Assembly (NCBI GenBank): GCA_910592005.1
Contig: CAJVPP010001224.1
Span: forward strand, 1 to 21,647
Length of the DNA stretch: 21,647 bases
Direction: 5' to 3'
From: Funneliformis mosseae
Taxonomy: Eukaryota > Glomeromycota > Glomeromycetes > Glomerales > Glomeraceae
The notes under the pieces were generated by a model. That model was not told where the DNA came from, did no database searches, and worked only from the letters and a program-made list of their open reading frames with translations. The position numbers and the translations under genes are program-made. Shown piece after piece: positions 3 to 20,465 of the stretch; position 1 is the stretch's first letter; each line of letters opens with the position of its first letter.

Positions 3-1738
3 TATTTTCAAGAATTTCTTTCTTCATTAAATTCTTATTATACTTTACCAAATGAAAAAAATATTAAATTGATGATTCATCAAGCTTATGATTGGACAGA
101 AACAAGCATGAAAGAATTATTACTATCATCTGCAAAGTATATTTCATTTACAACAGATTTGTGGACTTCAAGAGCCAAACATGGTTATATTGGTATTATT
201 GCTTCTTTTATGGATAATAATTTTAAAATTTATGATATATTACTAGAATGCAAATATTTACCTTATCCTTATGATGCTATAACAATCAAAGAATCTTTAA
301 TTAGTTTAATTAATAGTTGGAATTTTCAAAATAATATTGTAGCTATAACTAGTGATAATGGAAAAAATATGGTAAAAGCAATATCATATTTACCTTCTAT
401 TAGTAGAATTCCATATTCAGCACATACTCTCCAATTGGTAGTTGGTAAAGCATTAGAACCAACTATTATTTTTATTGCACGTGCAAAACGTTTAATTAGA
501 TTTTTTCAATATCCTAAACAACTTGAGCATTTATTAGCAACACAAAAAAATCTGGGTTATATAAATGAAGTTGGAGTAATTCAGGATGTATCTACAAGAT
601 GGAATTCCTCATTTTTAGCTTGGGAACGTCTTCTTTACTTAAAGGATGCTATTGATCAATTGGCAATTGATTTAACATGTGATCAGGACAATAATATTAA
701 AAAAGATGGACGTCGATTAAAAAAATTTAACCTTTCTGATGAAGAATGGATTTTTATGGAAAATTTAGTTGATTTACTTGGTATATTAGAAGAGGCAACC
801 ACAATTTTAGGAGGAAGCAATTATGTTACACTTAGCTTAATGTATTCTACAATTTCAGAATTAAAAAATCATTTTTCAAGTAATAATAACAATACCGAAA
901 ATATTGATCTTACAAATAATACAACTATTTTGGATAATGAAGAAGAAGAGGAAGATTATTTTGAAGAATCAGATAATAATATTGATGAGATAGTCAATCC
1001 TATTACACATCATCGAATTAATATTAATCAACCTATGACTACAGAAGGAATAATTGATCAGGTTAAATCTATAATTTCACAAGCTTTAGACAAATATTGG
1101 AATGTACCTTCCGAAATTGGTCTTAAAGCTTCATATTTGGATCCAAGGTTTAAAAATTTATTATTTACTACAAGAAAAGAGAAACTTAAAATTGAAGAAA
1201 TTCTTCATAATGAATTGCAAGAGATGATTGAATCATCATCTCTAATAACTTTATCAGTTTCGCCAAATGAAAATTTAAATACTATAACCAATGGTAAATA
1301 AGTAATTAATTTATTTTTTAAAAAATGATAGCATATATTTTAACCATTTAATTTTTTTATTAATTAGATGATTCAATTACAACACGAAAATCTCGATCGC
1401 GAAATACACTTTTTAAAAAAATTTTTTTAAATGCAGTTGCTAGTGACAAAACAAATGATGAAATAGTTAATTACAGTAATATGAAGTGTGCTGAATATAA
1501 TACTGATCCAGGTGAATGGTGGAATGAACGAAAAATGGTTTTTTCAAATTTATCTGAATTAGCATGAAAATATCTTCCTATAATTGCTACATCTGTTCCA
1601 AGTGAACGCTTATTTTCAGATACAGGAAATTATATTTCAATTTGACGTACACGCCTTGACCCAAATTTACTTTGTTGCATGATTTTTTTGAAACGAAATA
1701 TGAAAGTTTTGGATATATTTCCTCCAGAAGAAATCTGA
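3..1738 (+). pseudogene. hAT transposase, near intact, two exons, two TGA stops
   Basis: The reading frame is open from base 3, so the N-terminus (probably a BED zinc finger) is missing; a first ATG inside the window lies at 72. Exon 1 (3-1293) carries the hAT RNase H-like core: first Asp in FTTDLW (156-158), second Asp in TSDNGKN (354-356), an AHTLQL block where the usual CxxH is SAH, and the RWNSS block near 597-611. An Asp/Glu-rich loop lies near 930-1000. After a 74-nt intron, exon 2 (1368-1738) has the likely third acidic residue (Glu at 1460-1462), the GEWW block and the C-terminal dimerisation block SVPSERLFSDTGN. The frame continues exactly across the intron. Two TGA codons (1565-1567, 1643-1645) interrupt exon 2 where related proteins usually have Arg or a similar residue. 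It would act as a cut-and-paste nuclease in the nucleus. It is probably inactive, but only two base changes separate it from an open frame. Confidence 0.85.
1294..1367 (+). other. Intron in hAT transposase
   Basis: The donor GTAAAT follows the G of a split codon and the acceptor is ATTAATTAG. Removing 74 nt joins NTITN to DDSITTRKSRSRN in frame and leads into the dimerisation domain. The ORF that appears to stop at 1301 is simply reading into this intron. Confidence 0.8.
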
Positions 1739-2017: not shown

Positions 2018-2284
2018 GCATTAATGTACTAATGGTATATACTTCTTTCTTTGAAATATCTAGTGTATAGTAAAACTATATATAGGTTAATCTTGCAATA
2101 GATCTTACCAATTTGTCTTTTAGACCTTATGGAATAAATGAGTTTCTATGATACAAATAATAAGTTTATTAGAAATTTTTATTTTATTTAATAAATATTA
2201 ATTTACTTTGATCCAATAAAGAATGAAAAATTAATTTTATTTACCTTATTTATATAATGAAATGGCTTTCTCAAATCTTGAATA
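2018..2284. other. AT-rich spacer, no gene seen
   Basis: There is no open frame with recognisable content and no RNA gene. The stretch lies between the presumed hAT right end and the start of the tandem array, and its last part already resembles a degenerate array unit. Confidence 0.6.
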
Positions 2285-3700
2285 GATAGCAAACTGGATT
2301 CTGTAAGTCTTGGATCATTTTAAAGTAAGTTTTACAAACAAAAATTTTATTAAATTTTTTTTTTTTAAGAAAAAATCAAACAACTAACTAACAACTATAC
2401 TTATTTTCTTGTAGATGTAGTGGTCTTTCAAGCCTTGGATCTGTCTAGAGGTAAGTTCTACAAAAAAAATTTTATTAATTTTTTTTTTAAAAAAAAATCA
2501 AATAACTAACTAATAACTATACTTACCTTCTTATAGCTATTTAATGTAGAGATCCTTCAAGCTTTAGATCTATCTGAAGGTAAGTTCTACAAATGAAAAA
2601 TTTATTAAAATTTTTTTTTTTTAAGAAAAATCAAACAACTAACTAACAACTATGCTTATCTTCTTGTAGTTATTTAATGTAGCAATCCTTCAAGTCTTAG
2701 ATCCGTCTAGAGGTAAATCCTACAAAAAAATTTTATTAATTTTTTTTTAAGAAAAATTAAACAATTGACTACAATTACTTACCTTCTTATAGCTATTTAA
2801 TGTAGCGATCCTTCAAGTCTTGGATCTATCCAGAGATTAGTCCTACAAACGAAAATTTTATTAAATTTTTTTTTTTTAAGAAAAAATCAAATATCTGACA
2901 ACTATGCTTACCTTCTTATAGATATAGCAATTCTTCAAATCTTGGATCTGTCTGGAGGTAAGTCTTACAAAAAAAATTTTATTAATTTTTTTTTTAAAAA
3001 AAAATCAAACAACTAATTAACATTTATGCTTACCTTTTTGTAAATGTAATGATTCTTTAAGTCCTAGATCCATCCAGAGGTAAGTTCTACAAATGAAAAT
3101 TTTATTAAAATTTTTTTTTTTAAGAAAAATCAAATAACTAACAACTATACTTACCTTCTTGTAGCTATTTAATGTAGTAATTCTTTAAGCCTTGAATCCA
3201 GAGGTAAGTCCTACAAAAAAAATTTTATTAACTTTTTTTTTTAAGAAAAAAAAGAATCTTAACTACAAACTATATTTACCTTCTTGTAGTTATTCTTTAT
3301 TGTAACAACCCTTCAACTCTTAGATTTGTTTAAAGATAAATCCTACAACAAAATTTTATTAATTTTTTTTTTTTAAGAAAAGATCAAACTGATTACAATT
3401 ACTTACCTTCTTGTAGCTATTCTTTGATTCTTTAATCCTTAGATCATTGAAGGTAAGTCCTATAAAAAAAATTTTTTTTTAAAAAAAAAAAAAATTATCT
3501 AACTACCAACTATACTTACTTTTTTGTAGTTAGTAGCCTTGGATCATTAGTGATAAGTTCTAAAAAATTATTATTAAGTAATTATTTTTTTTTTTAAAAA
3601 AAAAATACTAAATATAGTTACTTCTTTTTTATAGCTTTTGGATTCTTTAAATCTTGATTTCAGAGGTAAGTCTTTAGGATATTTTTTTTTTTAAAAAAAA
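2285..3700. repeat. Tandem array of ~120-bp units, 11-12 copies
   Basis: The motif GGTAAGT (or a close variant) recurs on the plus strand at 2325, 2451, 2580, 2713, 2836, 2958, 3080, 3204, 3335, 3453, 3553 and 3666, a spacing of 100-133 bp. Each unit has a conserved 36-45 bp block with CTTCAAGYCTTRGATC, then (G)GTAAGTYCTACAAA, then a T-run followed by an A-run, then an AACTAAC-type stretch, then ACTTACCTTCTTGTAG. Units at the right end are shorter and more diverged. Two unit types differ by a 7-bp insertion in the core (60 versus 53 bp). The array is delimited by eye; the leftmost unit (2285-2340) is degenerate. I know no named satellite with this structure. Confidence 0.85.
2405..3671 (-). 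other. Candidate mini-exon/intron series inside the array
   Basis: Read on the minus strand, blocks 3671-3622, 3559-3520, 3459-3407, 3342-3280, 3210-3155, 3086-3034, 2963-2912, 2842-2783, 2719-2660, 2586-2527 and 2457-2405 are separated by gaps of 62, 60, 64, 69, 68, 70, 69, 63, 73 and 69 nt. Every gap ends in AG, usually as TTTTTTTGTAG, and nine of ten start with GT, usually GTAAGT or GTAAGC (the exception, at 2659, reads ATAAGC). Three adjacent blocks are exactly 60 nt. One frame of the blocks reads roughly LTSRQIQDLKDRYIK, with stops where other units have CAA or CAG. However, a stop next to LQE is shared by nearly all units that have the 7-bp insert. The series may therefore be a spliced non-coding RNA, a decayed repeat-protein gene, or a satellite that only mimics introns. 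Confidence 0.4.
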
Positions 3701-4309
3701 ATCCATCTTATTGGAAAAGTGATTAATAATAAACTTATTTTTTTTATATTTGCCTATATGTTATATTTGTTATCTTGCTTTTTAATTTATAGAATTAGAA
3801 TAATTGTGTTATTTAAAGATCATTTGTATATTCTGAAGATTACAAGTGACTGTCGACGACCTTATATATGCTTATATCTTCTGGTTGGTCAGTCAATGCA
3901 TCCTTCTACGTTTACTTATTAGTGTTTGAGGTTGCAGGATCTGGGATTTGCAAATGATCTAAGGATTATACTTTTATTTATCCTTAAAATAAAATCAAAA
4001 AGGGATTTAAATACATATTAGCAATTTTTTGTATATAGTATTGACTTATATTGAATTTTATGCTTTATTCAATATTTTTTTTGCTAAAAATTAACATCAC
4101 TATACTATTGTATCTTTAATCTATATCAAGTATATAAATCAAAATTTTAACTGTTTATTAATTTAAATTCTTTAAAGTTACAGAGATTTTGATAAATTCA
4201 TTATATTATCAATTTATTTTTATTTATTTTTTTTTTAACATGATATTTAAAATGAAAAACTTTGATTTTCATAAAAAAAAAAAATTCTCAAATAATAAAT
4301 TTAAAAACA
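3701..4309. other. AT-rich spacer, no gene seen
   Basis: The stretch has no recognisable coding remnant on either strand and no RNA gene. A 67-codon plus-strand frame at 3719-3922 is hydrophobic and AT-driven and has no homolog that I recognise. The DNA separates the tandem array from the end of the minus-strand hAT gene. Confidence 0.55.
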
Positions 4310-4733
4310 TTATTTAAAAGGAACTTCTAATTTCTTAAAAAGTGATTTTAAATTCCATTTTGCATTAGGATCAATTGCAGGATGAACAAAATTATTAATT
4401 GTTATAGATTCTTTTTCATTCTCAAATTACATATCAAAATCATTAAAAATTTCTTCTTCTAGAATTTTCACCTATCCTTCTAAATATTTACCAAATTCTT
4501 CTAAATAATCTGTTTTCTCATATTAGATAAATCTTTCTCTTTTAATTCTTCTTCTAAAGAAAATTTTTAACATTTTTGGTTTCTTTATCATTTTCATTAT
4601 CATTTATATCAGAATGTTCAGTACTATAAGTGTCAATTGTAATATTTAATGGAGTTGAAGAAGAATTGGATTTAAAATGATTATTCTATGTAATATTTGC
4701 TCTTAATTTACTCATGTCAAGTACTTTTACTGA

Positions 4734-4780
4734 CTAAAAAAAAATTAGTATTTATTAATTTTTAATATATAAACACTTAC
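4734..4780 (-). other. Intron in minus-strand hAT pseudogene
   Basis: A 47-nt intron: donor GTAAGTG, branch-like TACTAAT just before the T-run, and acceptor TTTTTTTTTAG. It lies right after the dimerisation block and joins it to SVKVLDMSKLRANI-like sequence. Confidence 0.6.
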
Positions 4781-5456
4781 TGTTAAATGATTTCATCGAT
4801 TTGTTTGCAAAAAATCTATGCAATTCTAAAAACATTCAACAGAGGCTGCATTCATACAAATTTCAAATATTTTATAGGCAATTAAGCCTAATTCATTAGT
4901 AAATACCTTTGCAAAATACCAATATCACTATTAAATTGTTTATATGTATCATAATTAAATGGATATTTTTCTAAGTGAAAATTATCAAATTTACGTAAAA
5001 TATAGATTGGTTCCTTTTCAAATTACGTTTGATAATAATAGATTAACCATTTTTCAAAAGTAGTATAATTAATTTTTACATTATCTTTAAATCGTTTCAT
5101 TTGATATTCAAGATGTAATAGACATGATAATAAGAGAAGTGGCTGCTCCCAATTATTCTATCTTTTTTTTAATCTAATTAATAATCTTATTGAAAGTTGT
5201 AAACTAGTAGTGGTATTATTACTCCAAAATTGAACAAGATATGTAAGACTATATATTACTTAAAATAAATGACTTTATTTTGTTATAAAATATTTAAGAT
5301 TTTATAATAAGGATATAATATTTTTACAATTATATTTAAATTGTTCCAAAATGTATTAGAATTAATAATTTCAAAAATACTATGAGTAATAGTTGAATTT
5401 TCTTATTTTTGTCGTCAAGTTTGATCAAAGGGTAGTTTATATGTAATAGCAAGTAA

Positions 5457-5525
5457 CTAAAATAAAAATAAATCAATAAATAAATTATTTACAATTAATA
5501 AAATTAATTTTTTTATACAATTTAC
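5457..5525 (-). other. Intron in minus-strand hAT pseudogene
   Basis: Donor GTAAAT, acceptor TTTATTTTAG, 69 nt. Splicing joins the RIQKALQ segment to LLAITYKLPFDQT, which matches the continuous order expected for this transposase lineage. Confidence 0.6.
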
Positions 5526-5828
5526 CTGTAAAGCTTTTTGTATTCTTAAAAGACTTATACATACTTCATAATAACTATTTTATTGGGTTTCTTCTGGAGC
5601 TATTATTGCATAATATTTACCATCATAAATATTTTTTTGTAATTCATATAACTTTGCAATAAAAAATTTATTGTTTGAATTTCTAAATAAGTCACAAGTC
5701 GAATAGTACTATTCAATAATAATTTTAATTCAGTTGATTTTTTAAATATTTTACCTACACAAAGATTAAATTGATATGCAAAACAGGATAAAAAAATAAT
5801 TTTTCTATTTGAGATTCTTAATTATCGT

Positions 5829-5914
5829 CTAAAATTTTATAAATGATAAATTTTATTTTATTAATAATAAAAAGTCAAATTTATAAAATTTTGTAATTTA
5901 AATTAAAAATATAC
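5829..5914 (-). other. Intron in minus-strand hAT pseudogene
   Basis: Donor GTATAT, acceptor AAATTTTAG, 86 nt. Splicing joins AYAAA-R to R-stop-LRISNRKIIFLSCF, which restores the expected second-Asp to CxxH-like order of hAT proteins. Confidence 0.6.
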
Positions 5915-6867
5915 CTGGCTGCTGCATATGCACTGACACTATCTATTACAACAGTATAAACATTAATTTTTTTATTTTTTAATTCCAAAATCATGGTTTC
6001 TGTTTTTTTAATTACTTCAACATGTGTTTCTCTTTCTAAACTAATATCAATTGCTTTTCCAAACATATGGTCTTCCTTTTAATATAATAATAATAATACC
6101 TAATAACTGTTCATTTTTTACATTAGTCCAACTATCAAATATAAGAGTTACTCTTACTGGATTTTCAGAAAATGCTTCTTCCATTATTTTATTACTTTCA
6201 AAAACAGCATCTTTTAAAATTTGTTCACCAAGAATCTAATGATCAGAAAGATTGAGTGAAGGATTAAGAAACTTAAATAGTTCTTTTACTTCAGATTTGT
6301 TAATCCAGTTTAAAGACTATTTACAAAAAACTGTTAATCGAATTAATAATATATTAAATTTTTGTGTATTTTGTTTTGATAATGGTCTAATAATATAATT
6401 ATCAAGTAGACCGTATGATGATGATTGTATAATAAGTTTTTGTGATGAATTAGAAAATGATGATTTTGAAGATATAGATAAAGTATCACAAGAAGAATCA
6501 GATTATAAATCTATAAAAAAATAATATTAAATAATTGTTTTATATAATAAAAATTAAAAAAAAAAATCAATAAAAATTTTTACATGATAATTTATTTTCA
6601 GACTGTAAATTATTATTGCATTTTGATAATAAAAAATTTTATTTCTTATTTCAGATATTGTTTTTTAACAAAATTTATACATTTTTTTAAATAGAATAAT
6701 ATTCTATCTGTTTTATTAGGAAAAAAAAATTTTTTTCCTTCTTCTTCACCTAATACTTCAATACAATATTTACAATAAATTTTAAGATTACTTGAATTAA
6801 TTTTTTCTTTTATTTTAATAATATATTTATCTAAAACTGTTGGTAAGATAAGCATTTTAAAATTCAA

Positions 6868-7112
6868 ATAATTGTAATTTTAAAAAATAAAAAGTAAAAG
6901 AAAATGTGAGAATAAATTTATCTGATCTATAAAAAAATAAGAATTGATTGGTTAGGATATAGCTAGAACATATCTGAAATTAAAATTTTAGTAAGAAATA
7001 TCCTTATGATAATCAATAAGCTAAGACATTGTGGAATACAGATATTAGGACATATCTCAAAATATCCTATATCTAAATCTATATGACAGACTTTGTCCTA
7101 TATACATCATTG
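6868..7112. repeat. Possible hAT subterminal motifs, no gene
   Basis: This region is upstream of the minus-strand hAT gene. A TAGGAYAT motif or its reverse (ATATCCT/GTCCTATA) occurs at about 6953, 6998, 7045, 7062 and 7095, in both orientations. Such clusters fit subterminal repeats of the neighbouring transposon, but I found no matching terminal inverted repeat, so the call is tentative. Confidence 0.3.
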
Positions 7113-7310
7113 GGCTTAGTTGCCTCTAAACTGTAATATAATATAATAGGCCTGATTACCTTTAAACTGTAATGTAACGTGATAGACTTAGTTACCTCTA
7201 AATTGTAATGTAATATAGTAGACCTGGTTGCCTCTATTATACTATCTTCTGGATTAGTTACCTACGTTGATAGACTTTCAAGATTAGTTATCTATATTGG
7301 CTAACAATAC
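7113..7310. repeat. 36-bp minisatellite, then 30-bp spaced copies
   Basis: Units start at 7113, 7149, 7185 and 7221 (36-bp period), with the core RRCYTRRTTRCCTYTAAAYTGTA. Shorter derivatives start at 7251 and 7281 (30-bp period) with GATTAGTTACCTA. The first three units match each other at most positions. No gene is associated. Confidence 0.75.
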
Positions 7311-7399: not shown

Positions 7400-7790
7400 A
7401 AAAGGTATAACTAATATATCTAATATGTTAATTATATCTAATATGTCAGCTATGTCTAATATATCAGTTATATCATATATGTCTAACATGTCTAATATGT
7501 CAGTTATATCATATATATCTATTATACCTATAGATGAGGGACGAAACCCCTTAATAACAGTCGAAACTTAGACGAAACTATATTAAAATCATAATAAGGG
7601 ATACGACGAAACCCATTTGATACGACGAAAGCCGAAACTGTCGAAACTATATTAAAAACATAGAAAAGGGTATGACGAAATTATTTTGAGGAGGTTTCGG
7701 CAGGCATCTATAATTATACCTAATATATCATTTATGTTGATTATGTCTAATATGTCATATATGTCAGATATGTTATCTATATAAATTGAT
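7400..7790. repeat. Degenerate TCTAATATGTC short-motif repeat
   Basis: Many variants of TCTAATATGTC, CAGTTATATC and ATATATGTC alternate on both sides of the small transposon at 7529-7712. The period is irregular (about 10-26 bp). This is simple-sequence-like DNA into which the small element was inserted. Confidence 0.6.
7529..7712. mobile_element. 184-bp MITE with 8-10 bp target duplication
   Basis: The element starts TATAGATG and ends CATCTATA, a perfect 8-bp inverted pair. The inverted repeat extends imperfectly to about 22 bp, through GACGAAACCCC on the left and the reverse of GGTTTCGGCAGG on the right. It is flanked by a direct repeat ATTATACC (7521-7528 and 7713-7720), which can be read as 10 bp because the next two bases, TA, also match. 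Inside are eight same-direction copies of CGAAA (7542, 7562, 7573, 7607, 7626, 7633, 7642, 7676) and one inverted copy near the right end. A segment of about 40 bp is also duplicated at an offset of 69 bp. An 8-bp duplication fits hAT; 9-10 bp would fit Mutator-like elements. It has no coding capacity. Confidence 0.8.
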
Positions 7791-7888: not shown

Positions 7889-10235
7889 ATGGCTAATCAT
7901 AATAATAAAAGTCATACTTCTTTTTTTTCTGAAGAGACAAAAATAATTCTAAATTAGTATATTGTAAAATATGTGAGCTTAATTATTTAAAAACTAATAA
8001 CAAACTCTATGTATATATCTAGAAAGGTGAAAATATAATAAGTATAATAAACCATTTACGAGATAATCATAATATAATCAAGAAAAATTATACTTAACAC
8101 TTGAATAAACATGACGAGATACAATTATTTTAAATTTAAATATTATTGAATTTTAAGAATTTATCTAATATTAATAGCTGCTAATTTATTTATTAGTCAA
8201 AATTTAATTAAAATAAAATTCCCAATTATTACAATAATGCAATAATAGCACTATAATGTTCAATTAAAAGATAAGACTTTTTAGCGAGAAAATTAATACA
8301 ATTTATTGTTCATTTAAACTTACTCCTTTATATTTTAGAGAATAAGTTTTTTCATGATTTTATTTTCGCATGTAAGCTGGGATTTTTCATTCCATATGTT
8401 AAAACTGCTAAAAGGCTAATACATAAAGTATATAATTGGAGTTATGATCAACTAAGCTTATTACTTCAAAGTAGCATAATAAGTATTCATTTGACTACTG
8501 ATTTATAGACTACAAAGTCCTAACATGATTATTTAGGTATTACAGCTTTCTGGTTATCTTCTGATTTTAAGTTTTGAGAAGCTTTTCTTTTTTGCAACTA
8601 TCTTTCATATCCATATACTGGAGAAGTAATTAGTGAAAAATTATTTAAAATAATTTCTGAATGGTGTCTTCAAACAATGGTTTTTATCATTTTTACAGAT
8701 AATGATTCTAATATGATAAGGAGAATAAGATTATTAAATAATAATTATATTAGTAATATAGAACGTTAACCTTATACAGCATATACTTTACAATTATCAA
8801 TTTAAGAGGAACTAAAATAATGTAAAGCTATTCATCATTATGTCAAAAGTTTGCAAACTTTTTTTCGACTTTCTAAGCAGACTCAACGTTTACGTAAAAT
8901 GTAAAATAATCAAATTAAAGGAGATTTTATTCAAAGTCTTCTTGATCTTTTAACAGATATTAAGATACAATAGAATTCTATCTTCTGGCTTAAAAGTGCA
9001 TTCTAAAATTGCATAACTCAATGAGATTTATTTTAACTTTGCTTCTTTCAGAAACAGATTGTGCTTTCAAAAAGAAGATGAAAAATTAGAACAGCTTTGC
9101 TTATTAGTTGCAGAAAAGAGTAATACATATTTTTTTTATTTAACTTTATTATCAATTATTTTATTTTATTTTTTAATATACAAAATAGATAAATTTCATA
9201 TTTTAAATACAATTCAAATTTTTAACTCTTATTATTTATTTATTTTATAGATTTATACAAAATGTAATAAAACAATTAGAACTGATCAAAATTATGACTT
9301 AGTATTTGTGTGATACAAGCTATTTTACTTTTAATCTTATTCATCTTTTTATGATATCTCTTAAAAAACAATTTGCTTCAAGATCAGATAAAGAAGAGAC
9401 AATTAAATCTTATCTAAATCTTATCTACGAAGAAAATTATGAAGAAAGTGATGATAAAATAACTGATAATGATATATCTACTGCTGATACTCAACAATAA
9501 TAGCAATATGCATATCGACAATTTCATCAAAGAATGAAAATCTGCGACTAAAGAAGATAAATTCGAATAAGACCAATTAGAAAATAAATAAGAATTGAAA
9601 GTATTGAAGATAAAAATCAAATTAAATATTTACTATTAGTTGATATTATTAGATTGATTAAAAATGTTCAAGCTGTAATTTATTTTTCATTAAATGAATT
9701 ATAGTCTGTTCTAACTGATAATACTTTAATTGTCATGTTTTTTGATCTGAGGTTTAAACATTTTAATTAGATAACTCTAGATAAACGTGATAAAGTATTT
9801 TAATTAGTAAAAATAAAATATTATGTATTAAAATTAAGTCTTCATATTATAGATAACACAAAACTGACAGAAAATAAGTATCAGAATAATGATGACAATA
9901 ATTTTTTTCACAATCTTGAAGGTGATTGTATACAAATGATTACAGATGATGATGACAAAATATCACACTATAAAAATATAAAGAATATTAAAATTAAAAA
10001 TGATCCTTTAACCTGGTAAGTAAATTATAGGAATAGTTTTTCCATTTTAATGTAACTTGCAAGAAAATATCTTTTGATTTCAATCACTTCAGTGTTAAGT
10101 GAACAATTATTTTCTGATGCTGAAAATCATATTTCTGTAAAATAAATGTGCTTATTACCTGATTTAGTAAATAAGGTATTATTTCTAAAACGCAATAATA
10201 TTCATTTTGAAATGTTTCCACCTTAAGAAATTTAA
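7889..10235 (+). pseudogene. hAT transposase with BED finger, heavily decayed
   Basis: Starts at ATG 7889-7891 and can be followed to the C-terminal FPP-EI stop, the same ending as the first hAT copy. Order: a BED finger (YCKICEL, then, after a frameshift, INHLRDNHN with its His-x4-His) at about 7950-8090; FACKLGFFIPYVKTAKRL; first Asp in TTDL-stop-T (8500-8502); second Asp in FTDNDSN (8698-8700); PYTAYTLQL; the RWN block as Q-stop-N (8969-8976); an acidic loop near 9420-9500; and the dimerisation block SVLSEQLFSDAEN (about 10088-10125). More than fifteen in-frame stops and several frameshifts are present. Compared with the first hAT copy here, stops sit at Trp (TAG 8506-8508 and 8971-8973) or at likely Gln codons. 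This lineage would be a nuclear cut-and-paste transposase; this copy is dead. Confidence 0.8.
9120..9250 (+). other. Possible intron in decayed hAT
   Basis: A 131-nt, extremely AT-rich stretch begins GTAATA after LLVAEK and ends TTATTTTATAG. Transposase-like sequence resumes afterwards. Neither side is conserved enough to prove splicing. Confidence 0.35.
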
Positions 10236-10600
10236 TAATTAACACTTGTTATTATAGTTAATACTTAATAATTAATTCTTTTAATTTTTAAATTTTAAAT
10301 TTTAATAATTTTAAATGTAATAGAATTACTTATTAATTAAACATTTAAATAATAAATAATAAATATATTAATTGAATAATTAAATTTTAAATTAATTATT
10401 TATTGATTTAATCTACATTTTTATTATTATTTTTTTTATTTATTATTTTATTATATTACAAAAAAGTAATGATAAGCTATAAAAATATATTGATAATCAG
10501 TTTATCAGTTTCTCATTTTATCATTTATCAGTTTTAACTGATTTATCGATTTATCAATTCAAACTGATATATAACAGTTCCAATTTTTATAACATGAATA
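10236..10600. repeat. AT-rich 3' flank of hAT with inverted motifs
   Basis: No gene. From about 10485 to 10580 the motif ATCAGTTT and its reverse AAACTGAT occur repeatedly, with ATTTATC in between. This looks like a subterminal repeat region of the preceding hAT element. A terminal inverted repeat could not be matched to the left side, so the element boundary is unknown. Confidence 0.4.
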
Positions 10601-14169: not shown

Positions 14170-16256
14170 CTAAAAAAAATAAAATTATGTAAATAAACGT
14201 AAACTTTTAGTGAGAATTTTTACAAAAGTTTTGCGTGTGCATTTAAATAATATAATAGAACAGATTTTGACTATATTATATTTCCAATCTATAGGTTTAG
14301 AAATAGGATATATACTATATGTGCAATTTTCTATTCTGGGGGAATATCTTCAAGTGTAAAGCATCTTTTAATAAGATCTCAGAGAAGTGATTGCATCAGT
14401 AGATCTAGATACTTTAGGCCTGCCACTTTGTTATTAGGAAGTTGTGATAGAACTTTTAACTATTCTTCTAAAGTAGGTAATTGTATGATATTAATAAAAT
14501 ATAACTTTAGTATATCAGACTTTAGTTGGTATTGTTCTAACCATCTTTCAAATAGAAGGGTGTCAGAGATGTTAAAATAGCATAGTTTTGAAAATAGTCA
14601 TTAACTTTTTATTTGATAATATTGGGATCATTAATTAGTATATGCGAGTCTTTTGCATCTTTAATTACCAGTCTATCAATTACAATTAATTTTTTGTACC
14701 TTTCTAAAGTTAATTAGATCATCTTATCTAGGTTAGTATCAAATTGTAGATAACATTAATAAATATAATACTTGATTTTGTATAGCTTAATTTAATTTCT
14801 TCTGTTTGTGATAACACTTTGATATTGTGGTATAGTTTGAGAATAGTTTTTTTAGTTTCTTTTATATTTTTCTCATAGATAATAGCTGGTAAATTGGGTG
14901 ATAAAATTGTTAATGATCTGAGTGTCATTTATTCATTCATCTCTTATGAGCTATGTTTTTTGATTTTATTAGTTTTAACTTAAATTTGAGAACAATATTA
15001 TTGAGGCTTTTTAAACAGCTATAGAAGGTGACGATATTACTGTGTTTCAGTTATTTTTAGTCTGCTGAGACCTAACAAAATGATAAAGTTCTCATAGCGA
15101 TACTCATGATAGAAATTTTAATCTCTTTCTATATGTGATTCATCGTATTGTAGGTCTGAGATAACAAAGTCAATTTTTCCATGTAGTATTACTAGTAATA
15201 TTTGTCTAATGATTCTATGAATACTGTTCACTTGGTAGATATCATAGAAGTCAGTTTGAATTTCTTTTTTTTGTGCATTTTCTTTTAGAATTTGCTTTTT
15301 GCATAGTCTTAAAATTGGCAAAGAAACTTATTAAGGTATTATGATCTAATTTGTATAATAGTGATTTTGAGAGGGTACAGTATAGAAACTCTATTATAAA
15401 ATTTAGCAAGATGAAGATTCCATTTATTCTATTGGATAAGCTATTATCATTATTGTTAATATTGGATGGGAAAAAAGTAGATAGGTTATCTTCTAGGTTG
15501 TTTTTTTAAAGATTTGAGAAGTTTCTTTATAAAGTCTATTAATTAAATGAAATTCCCATTCTATCTTGCTATAGTTTTTTAGTTTACTATAGTAGATATT
15601 AAGGTTAGTATTAAAGTCACTTATAATTAACACATGAATATTATCTTTGATATAATTATCTATTAAGTCTAGAATTTGTTTTTGTAGAAGTCTTCTTTCA
15701 TGTATATAGGAAAAATTTCTAGTATTAGCTTAGATATAATATGAAAAGATTCTTAGTTTTAGGTGTCTCTTAGCATTATATTTATATATATTAGTCTGAG
15801 AAATACAAAGTTTGTTCTAACTATGTATTTACTCCATTTTTTTGAAATAAGTAGATACACTCCTACATATGGAGTTGATGATTCTAGATTGCTCCAGTAA
15901 TAATTATATAAAATGTATTTTTTAAATTTAATAATGGTATTTTTTGTGTGTCTTATTTCAATTAGACTGATTATATCTAATTCTTTAATTTTACAATATT
16001 CTAAGATTTGGTTAGCTTTAATTATGTCTGTGAATTCATATATGCTTCTAATATTGTGGGTAGCGATCCTAATAATGTCACTGTTTATTATCTTTTTAAT
16101 ATTAATATGATCTGGTATTTAGATATTATTGTTTATAAATTTATTGTTGAATCTCTATTATTAAGGAATATTTGTTTTTTGTATATTGATAAAAGTTGAT
16201 ATATTATTTTTGTAAGTATTGAAGTTCCCGTTATTAGTAAAAAAACTCTAGTTCAT
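14170..16256 (-). pseudogene. LINE ORF2: APE endonuclease and RT start
   Basis: An ATG at 16256 opens 23 nt before the end of ORF1. The endonuclease domain (about 16085-15480) shows IATHNIRSI (the conserved Asn), LDIISLIEIRHTK (catalytic Glu block), TPYVGVYLLISKKWSKYIV and, after a frameshift near 15760, LIISDFNTNLN, equivalent to the GDFN motif. A degraded stretch holding GKIDFVISDLQYD (15321-15118) follows. The reverse transcriptase begins at about 14580 with LKVLSQLPNNKVAGL, RCFTLEDIPPE, IYPISKPIDWK and RKTFVKILTKSL, matching the finger region of LINE reverse transcriptases, then stops at about 14170. The catalytic YxDD palm is absent. ORF2 would nick DNA and copy the element's RNA at the target; this copy cannot. 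Confidence 0.7.
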
Positions 16257-20335: not shown

Positions 20336-20465
20336 CGTAAATTCTAAATATATGCATTTTAAATTTTGTATTCTAAATGTATACACTCTAAATGTATGCG
20401 TTCTAAATGTATGCATTTTAAATGTAATGCGTTCTAAATGTACGGATTATCTAAATGACATGTGT
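20336..20465. repeat. ~15-bp tandem repeat TTCTAAATGTATGCAT
   Basis: Seven or so variants of TTCTAAATGTATGCR follow each other with a 14-18 bp period. They differ by small indels and A/G changes. It lies directly behind the DDE-like gene. Confidence 0.75.

What the first reader, a model, noticed from the sequence alone, without database searches (positions are those of the whole stretch)
2405..3671. Tandem array that looks like 11 mini-exons and 10 introns on the minus strand
In plus coordinates, gaps of 60-73 nt separate blocks of 40-63 nt. All ten gaps end in AG, mostly TTTTTTTGTAG, and nine begin with GT, mostly GTAAGT/GTAAGC. The splice-like signals are among the best conserved parts of each unit. 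I know of no described satellite whose repeat unit is exactly one small exon plus one small intron. It could be a spliced non-coding RNA gene grown by exon duplication, or the relic of a repeat-protein gene.
Basis: partly seen in the sequence, partly recalled or inferred. Interest (0 to 1): 0.8.

Follow-up and report, generated by a model that had tools for sequence, protein, structure and literature searches.

The report
Splice-like repeat array inside a transposon
In the genome of a root-symbiotic (arbuscular mycorrhizal type) fungus, a row of 120-base repeats that each look like a tiny exon plus a tiny intron turns out to be cargo of a dead DNA transposon, and related repeats ride in another kind of transposon too, which raises the untested possibility that transposons keep them so that their RNA can be spliced.

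Summary
In detail: on the minus strand 11 blocks of 40-63 nt and 10 gaps of 60-73 nt; 9 of 10 gaps begin GT, 10 of 10 end AG. It is not a stand-alone gene. The array is the tandem-repeat block near the 3' end of a decayed hAT/DUF659-type DNA transposon (window about 7113 down to 2021). Homologous units occur in all 40 other stretches fetched from this 82-Mb genome: in two hAT groups and a pogo/Tigger group with TA target sites, including ~800-bp non-autonomous elements; six loci stay unassigned. No long open spliced frame appeared in the 21 loci modelled, and no protein relative was found. Units typically carry AGGTAAGT-like donors at both ends, facing outward, so they read acceptor-exon-donor on both strands; that grammar occurs 70 times in 47 kb of array and never in 189 kb of flanks. 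Donor Gs suffer transitions 0.5-0.6 times as often as C/G sites in the same context, but other changes at donors are not rarer in two of three groups: a mixed signal. Best reading: transposon-borne, two-strand splice cassettes; splicing itself is untested, and a neutral repeat is nearly as likely. Internal tandem repeats in transposons are known; a splice-competent unit shared between superfamilies I did not find described.

The parts
2021..7113 (-). Decayed hAT/DUF659-type DNA transposon that contains the array; 5' end inferred at 7113 (CAATG..., CAGTG... in copy L009); 3' end missing in the window (homology to L010 and L012 stops at about 2021)
   Evidence: 87% identity to C1426 (L011) over 4.8 kb and to C3661 (L009) over 3.9 kb, ending at 7111 and 7105; ends compared by eye
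4310..6450 (-). Broken transposase coding remains (DUF659 part and C-terminal end ...KWNLKSLFKKLEVPFK*); upper limit approximate
   Evidence: translation; weak DUF659 match, E 0.061; homologues of copy L011 at E 6e-91, mostly annotated DUF659
2333..3672 (-). Tandem array: 11 mini-exon-like blocks plus one more unit, period about 122 bp
   Evidence: 11 and 12 profile hits
3344..3672 (-). First three units of the array; their nearest relatives are the first three units of L011 and L009 (90-93.5%)
2280..2332 (-). Decayed unit beyond the 3' end of the array (AACTTACTTTAAAATGATCC...)
2449..3671 (+). Seven exact AGGTAAGT donors on the plus strand (2449, 2578, 2956, 3078, 3202, 3451, 3664), each at one end of a block; plus-strand acceptors such as CTTCTTGTAG at the other end of most blocks
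2521..3408 (-). Four exact AGGTAAGT donors on the minus strand (2521, 2777, 3149, 3401) and near-matches in the other units

Best explanation
The array is the internal tandem-repeat block of a dead hAT/DUF659-type DNA transposon in a Glomeromycotina-type fungus. Its 120-bp unit belongs to an old repeat superfamily carried by different DNA transposons of this genome. A unit is a splice cassette: a 30-60 nt core with AGGTAAGT-type donors at both ends that face outward, and TAG acceptors, so that on either strand it reads acceptor - mini-exon - strong donor, with intron-length spacers between units. SHOWN: the repeat anatomy, its place inside transposons of two superfamilies, lack of a usable reading frame in the loci modelled, and the two-strand grammar. 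INFERRED: when such an element is transcribed, by itself or from a host gene in either orientation, the host spliceosome uses the units as exons and introns; this was weakly selected, plausibly because well-spliced transcripts escape surveillance or premature termination. Unit number changes by ordinary tandem-repeat gain and loss. In the window copy everything is decaying, mostly by C-to-T and G-to-A change. Odds: about 0.95 transposon-internal, 0.85 non-coding, about 0.3-0.35 that splicing of the units is or was used (lowered a little on re-checking); the score is for the whole.
For: Transposon: 4.8 kb and 3.9 kb of 87% identity with copies on two other contigs and a CAGTG-type terminus in one; homologues of the L011 transposase pieces at E 6e-91, among them R. 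irregularis, R. clarus and Diversispora proteins. Second hAT group (L016, L020, L040, L041, L046, L047): hAT transposase matches on the array's strand and ending before it, from E 6e-55 (L016) to only 4e-5 (L047). pogo/Tigger group: DDE_1 E 5.9e-13 (L018) and HTH_Tnp_Tc5 E 2.7e-7 (L031); terminal repeat CAGTCAGACCTCTCTAAATGC with TA outside at 13 of 13 5' ends and 16 of 16 3' ends located; 5' flanks of ten copies differ. Two-strand cassette: ACTTACCT N{20,45} AGGTAAGT at 62 places in the genome against 2 for the reversed control; 70 matches to two relaxed grammars in 47,237 bp of array sequence and 0 in 189,027 bp outside; both readings seen in the window's group, the pogo group and families B, C and D. 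Donor transitions: 20/184 against 433/2147 in ApG context and 32/192 against 239/873 in GpG context, each p 0.002. Non-coding.
Against: No RNA data were available, so no junction is shown. The counts are not independent (units share history), and column by column the donor Gs are low but not alone. Changes other than C-to-T/G-to-A at donors are not rarer than in the exon in the window's and pogo groups. The acceptor G is about average. The inverted ends show no clear compensatory changes. Only one of the two readings is found in the second hAT group, and one site in family E. Families B-E were found with the palindrome itself, so their sharing it is partly circular. The introns inferred in this genome have weaker donors (GTAAGT in 2 of 15) and none has ACTTAC or CTTAC in its last 40 nt. 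The window's transposase has no match at E <= 1e-3 to the 120 hAT proteins, so its hAT label rests and DUF659.
Confidence: 0.46

Rival explanations
1. Neutral internal minisatellite of DNA transposons. The unit descends from a piece that contained exon-intron-like signals, was duplicated in tandem inside a transposon and passed between transposons by nested insertion or recombination; the splice-like letters do nothing.
For: Tandem repeats inside DNA transposons and MITEs are well known (PMC9659126 passages). The acceptor G is average, other changes at donors are not rarer in two of three groups, no clear compensatory change in the inverted ends, unit number differs between copies, C and G sites decay everywhere.
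Against: Transitions at donor Gs are fewer than at context-matched sites in all three groups; the two-strand grammar is absent from 189 kb of flanks and kept in diverged kin (found by that very grammar); the unit lives in different transposon superfamilies.
Confidence: 0.4
2. Relic of a repeat-protein gene with one mini-exon per repeat (for example an effector of the SP7 kind) captured by transposons; 51-nt phase-0 exons reading like DLPLNDPSLEESGSYKK would be the coding ancestor.
Against: Synonymous and non-synonymous transitions decay alike; no longer open chain in the 21 loci modelled; no protein with such repeats at E <= 0.1 among 5.8 billion; the window's units are mostly 53 or 60 nt, and the 60-nt units listed have stops in all frames.
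Confidence: 0.07
3. Free-standing spliced non-coding RNA gene grown by exon duplication.
For: Anatomy as described; gap lengths like introns inferred in this genome.
Against: In the three groups that I could assign, the array shares its flanks with transposon copies; six loci were not assigned and could still differ.
Confidence: 0.04
4. Array of binding sites for a host DNA-binding protein (chromatin, replication or transposition factor) for which the inverted ACTTACCT/AGGTAAGT ends, not splicing, are what is recognised.
For: Inverted ends kept across families; shared by different transposons, so the binder would be a host factor.
Against: The conserved word is the complement of the U1 snRNA 5' end (recalled), and TAG acceptors sit at fixed places on both strands, which binding alone does not predict.
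Confidence: 0.07

Closest known systems
Tandem repeats riding on DNA transposons (Xenopus miDNA4 in a Tc1/mariner MITE, central tandem repeats of DINE Helitrons, Tetris TIR-220; as listed in PMC9659126, passages seen)
   Same: Short tandem repeats internal to class II elements and spread by transposition, including in MITEs
   Different: Here the unit is one exon-like core plus one intron-length spacer with splice signals on both strands, and homologous arrays sit in hAT and pogo elements of one genome
hAT transposons with DUF659 transposase of Glomeromycotina
   Same: Transposase homology, CAGTG-type 5' terminus in one copy
   Different: I know of no described hAT element with such an array (recalled); target-site duplication could not be tested
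pogo/Tigger elements (DDE_1, Tc5-type HTH, TA target)
   Same: Transposase domains, TA at both ends, CAGT terminal repeat, short non-autonomous derivatives
Transposons that carry their own splice sites (maize Ds and dSpm; introners) - recalled, no call
   Same: Element DNA provides splice sites that the host could use
   Different: Those remove the element as an intron; here many internal cassettes with both signals on both strands, and no use shown
SP7-like effector genes of AM fungi (PMC11333574: outline, section 6 and passages seen)
   Same: Imperfect repeats, AM fungi, an intron before the first repeat
   Different: No long open frame here; no sequence comparison to SP7 was possible

Membership tests
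hAT DNA transposon (window element) | hAT-type transposase | tested here: met
   Broken; homologues of the L011 copy at E 6e-91, most with DUF659 and one annotated HAT C-terminal dimerisation. Weaker: own Pfam match only E 0.061; no match at E <= 1e-3 to the 120 hAT proteins
hAT DNA transposon (window element) | Short terminal inverted repeats, CAGTG-like | tested here: inconclusive
   5' end CAGTG in L009, CAATG in the window, not in L011; a ...CACTG end in L010; the two ends come from different copies
hAT DNA transposon (window element) | 8-bp target-site duplication | not testable with these tools
   No fetched copy of this group holds both ends
pogo/Tigger element (related arrays) | DDE_1 and Tc5-type HTH transposase | tested here: met
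   E 5.9e-13 (L018) and 2.7e-7 (L031); other members assigned by terminal repeats or homology
pogo/Tigger element (related arrays) | TA target site at both ends and terminal inverted repeats | tested here: met
   TA outside 13 of 13 5' ends and 16 of 16 3' ends located
Transposon-internal tandem repeat | Tandem units inside element boundaries in independent insertions | tested here: met
Spliced mini-exon array | GT-AG boundaries at each unit | tested here: met
   9 of 10 GT and 10 of 10 AG in the window
Spliced mini-exon array | Splice junctions in RNA | not testable with these tools
   No RNA reads available
Repeat-protein gene | Open frame through the spliced units | tested here: not met
   21 of 41 loci modelled; best repeat-type chains 5-6 exons, 75-80 residues; window units with stops
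SP7-like effector | Signal peptide, hydrophilic repeats with conserved island, intron before first repeat | not tested
   No SP7 sequence was at hand; not filed as a member
Conserved RNA hairpin | Compensatory changes between the inverted ends | tested here: not met
   Changes on the two sides look independent; the matching script misplaced some right ends in the window's group

The most novel reading that the evidence does not exclude
Unrelated DNA transposons of this fungus share a transferable, orientation-independent splice cassette: arrays of strong donors and acceptors on both strands that make any transcript crossing the element look efficiently spliced, so that it escapes splicing-coupled RNA silencing (as described in Cryptococcus, where poorly spliced transposon RNAs feed RNAi; PMC5851062 passages) or premature polyadenylation in an AT-rich genome.
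Probability: 0.13. Interest if true: 0.88.

Novelty: new variant of a known kind. Interest (0 to 1): 0.58.

Why it matters
If the units are spliced, this is a repeat whose selectable feature is the splice site itself, carried by transposons of different superfamilies; it would give a natural, many-copy test of whether transposons use splicing to escape host defence, and a source of ready-made mini-exons for new genes. If they are not spliced, it is a striking case of how a satellite-like repeat can mimic gene structure and mislead gene finders in AM-fungal genomes.

Tried and rejected
Rejected: repeat-protein gene (the open 5-6-exon chains in L016, L020 and L025 are the best case for it); Rfam family (no match in the window at gathering thresholds); tRNA (0); RNA hairpin from the inverted ends (no clear covariation); recent local homogenisation (units within a locus are no more alike than between loci, 0.807 over 283 pairs against 0.806 over 845); ACTTAC as the usual branch site of this fungus (0 of 15 introns inferred). 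My first thought that families B-E have unrelated cores was too strong: a later comparison shows weak DNA similarity of D and E to the window's family and of B to L042, so they are diverged kin rather than independent inventions. Literature: the searches showed no described splice-unit repeat in transposons; I saw listings and starts of abstracts, plus passages of five papers (PMC11333574 with section 6, PMC8786786, PMC9659126, PMC8647823, PMC5851062); only the held open-access library was searched. Dumesic 2013 was seen only as cited in PMC5851062. PMC8647823 (passages) says that RIP signatures were not detected in Gigaspora margarita, so I call the decay only RIP- or deamination-like.

Nothing came of: the 5' terminus of the second hAT group (a sharp ...AGCTCTA 3' end in L016, L020, L040, L046, no matching 5' end). 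Gene models were made for 21 of 41 loci only. Of 18 exon boundaries in five housekeeping loci, 3 gave no intron by the rule and were dropped; the rule prefers GTAAGT-like donors. L038 (one unit) fell outside the group counts.

Full report
WHAT WAS CHECKED. The window is contig C1224 of an unnamed 82-Mb, 4154-contig genome. It is AT-rich (17-31% GC in 1-kb windows), and the named protein hits of its transposases are Glomeromycotina: Rhizophagus, Ambispora, Funneliformis, Diversispora and others. The reported structure is there. On the minus strand, ten gaps of 60-73 nt separate eleven blocks of 40-63 nt; nine gaps begin GT and all ten end AG (two donors placed by hand). Exact AGGTAAGT occurs 11 times, all in the array, against 0.4 expected. 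Seven of these are on the plus strand.

WHERE IT LIES. DNA searches with two-unit or three-unit probes found homologous units on many contigs (the tool calls its counts lower bounds). I fetched 40 stretches on other contigs and with the window analysed 41 loci; a unit profile hits all 41 (L038 only once), with 304 hits and 226 complete units. Comparing flanks shows that the arrays travel with transposons. The window array is in an element whose 5' end I place at 7113 and whose homology to other copies stops at about 2021; it is 87% identical to C1426 over 4.8 kb and to C3661 over 3.9 kb. Its minus strand holds a broken transposase ending near 4310, about 640 bp before the array. Pieces of the C1426 copy, joined with X, find DUF659 proteins at E 6e-91, which places it with hAT-type elements; the window's own piece matches the Pfam model only weakly (E 0.061), and none of the 120 hAT proteins found matches it at E <= 1e-3. 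A second group (L016, L020, L040, L041, L046, L047) has hAT transposase matches on the same strand before the array: E down to 6e-55 in L016, only 4e-5 in L047. A third group has pogo/Tigger transposase domains on the other strand, with the array on the 5' side of the transposase, terminal repeats CAGTCAGACCTCTCTAAATGC, and TA outside all 13 5' ends and all 16 3' ends that located. Of the ten copies with both ends, nine are 730-810 bp long with three or four unit hits and one (L018) is 3.9 kb with transposase remains; the 5' flanks of ten copies differ. Six loci (L013, L014, L042, L043, L045, L048) were not assigned, although L013 shares the 3' end of the window's group at 68%.

IS IT CODING. 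In the window's group the exons are mostly 53 nt, or 60 nt with stops in all three frames in every listed case; of the 8 window units listed, 4 have stops in all frames. A search for the best open spliced chain in 21 loci gave short products: mostly low-complexity or unrelated ones, but 75-80 residues of repeat-like sequence over five or six exons in L016, L020 and L025, the best case for a coding past. Transitions decay equally at synonymous and non-synonymous sites (means 0.28 and 0.25, p 0.34; 0.24 and 0.22, p 0.41). A query of ten such exons found no protein at E <= 0.1. I therefore reject the protein reading for the window and hold it unlikely for the family.

WHAT IS CONSERVED. A and T columns are better kept than C and G columns, which change mostly by C-to-T and G-to-A. 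Within each neighbour context donor Gs show fewer transitions: 20/184 against 433/2147 for ApG and 32/192 against 239/873 for GpG, p 0.002 each. Units share history, so these p values are too small; by columns the effect is modest. Against this, other kinds of change at donor columns are not rarer than in the exon in the window's group (9/237 against 65/2546) or the pogo group (47/453 against 244/4576), only in the second hAT group (4/320 against 270/3247). The G of the acceptor is about average. Between groups the exon consensus differs at 7-9 of 51 sites, the donor at 0 of 5, the first ~20 intron sites at 6-8 of 20-22 (Fisher p 0.05-0.36): suggestive only.

BOTH STRANDS. The block starts with ACTTACC and ends with GGTAAGT. 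On the minus strand a TAG acceptor stands just outside the left end; on the plus strand a TTGTAG acceptor stands just inside. So each strand offers acceptor, mini-exon and donor. The strict palindrome ACTTACCT N{20,45} AGGTAAGT occurs at 62 places in the genome, against 2 for the reversed control. Of the 50 places listed I count 18 of the window's family and 32 others. Fetched examples of the others (L049-L055) are again arrays or array-like rows with the same ends (TRF gives periods of 122 in L049 and 120 in L053, none in L051). Some show weak DNA similarity to the window's family (for example L053 and L010, 66% over 499 bp, E 4e-9) and are best seen as old relatives. Relaxed forms of the two grammars match 70 times in 47,237 bp of array sequence and never in 189,027 bp outside; since the forms were written after seeing the arrays, this shows specificity, not independent discovery. 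Both readings were found in the window's group, the pogo group and families B, C and D; only one reading in the second hAT group, and one site in E. Of 15 introns inferred in housekeeping genes 13 are 56-99 nt, 2 have GTAAGT donors and none has ACTTAC near its end, so the array signals are stronger than usual.

HOW IT COULD WORK. Shown: a transposon-borne tandem repeat without a usable frame and with splice-like signals on both strands. Inferred: that transcripts across it are spliced, and that this helped the elements. Fungal precedent for a link exists: in Cryptococcus poorly spliced transposon transcripts feed RNAi (PMC5851062, passages). Strong donors on both strands would make any transcript across the element a good splicing substrate, whichever way it is inserted. 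Suppression of premature polyadenylation by U1 binding is an alternative (recalled). A neutral minisatellite remains nearly as likely.

EVOLUTION. Units of the window's group are as different within a locus as between loci, so the array was already diverse before the copies spread; the first three units correspond in position between window, L011 and L009. Unit numbers differ (22 hits in C3661, 11 in C1426, 12 in the window), although the C1426 array stops within 80 bp of its contig end. How homologous arrays came to sit in hAT and pogo elements is unknown: nested insertion, recombination or capture.

COMPARISON. Internal tandem repeats in DNA transposons are known (PMC9659126, passages). I found no description of a splice-competent unit or of one shared by superfamilies in the searches named under Tried and rejected. 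SP7-like effectors (PMC11333574) were considered; their defining features could not be tested and no membership is claimed.

Noticed in passing
window 3-1301 (+): Uninterrupted 432-aa part of another hAT transposase, 93% identical to a database protein; named relatives are from Rhizophagus, Ambispora, Funneliformis.
   Followed up: partly
window about 8260-10250 (+): Another decayed hAT-looking stretch (by eye) in which likely Gln and Trp codons read TAA/TAG, i.e. C-to-T and G-to-A decay; suggests deamination or a RIP-like process, although RIP is reported as undetected in Gigaspora margarita (PMC8647823 passages).
   Followed up: no
window about 15762-16118 (-): 119-aa open stretch (ATHNIRSIYEF...) that looks like the endonuclease of a non-LTR retrotransposon (by eye only).
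   Followed up: no
window 7119-7236, 7406-7531, 20341-20442: Further tandem repeats: 36 bp x 3.3, 9 or 18 bp units, and 15 bp x 6.8; the first lies right outside the 5' end of the transposon.
   Followed up: no
L050 (C459), flank of the array: Inverted pair ATATAGTGAT ... ATCACTATAT beside a family B array, perhaps another transposon type that carries the cassette.
   Followed up: no
L042, oriented 3707-4499: Open frames resembling a Crinkler-type protein next to an array locus (by eye only).
   Followed up: no
C302, C930, C1254, C2875 and others: Further sites of the ACTTACCT...AGGTAAGT palindrome with varied cores that were not fetched; the superfamily is probably larger than described here.
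   Followed up: no
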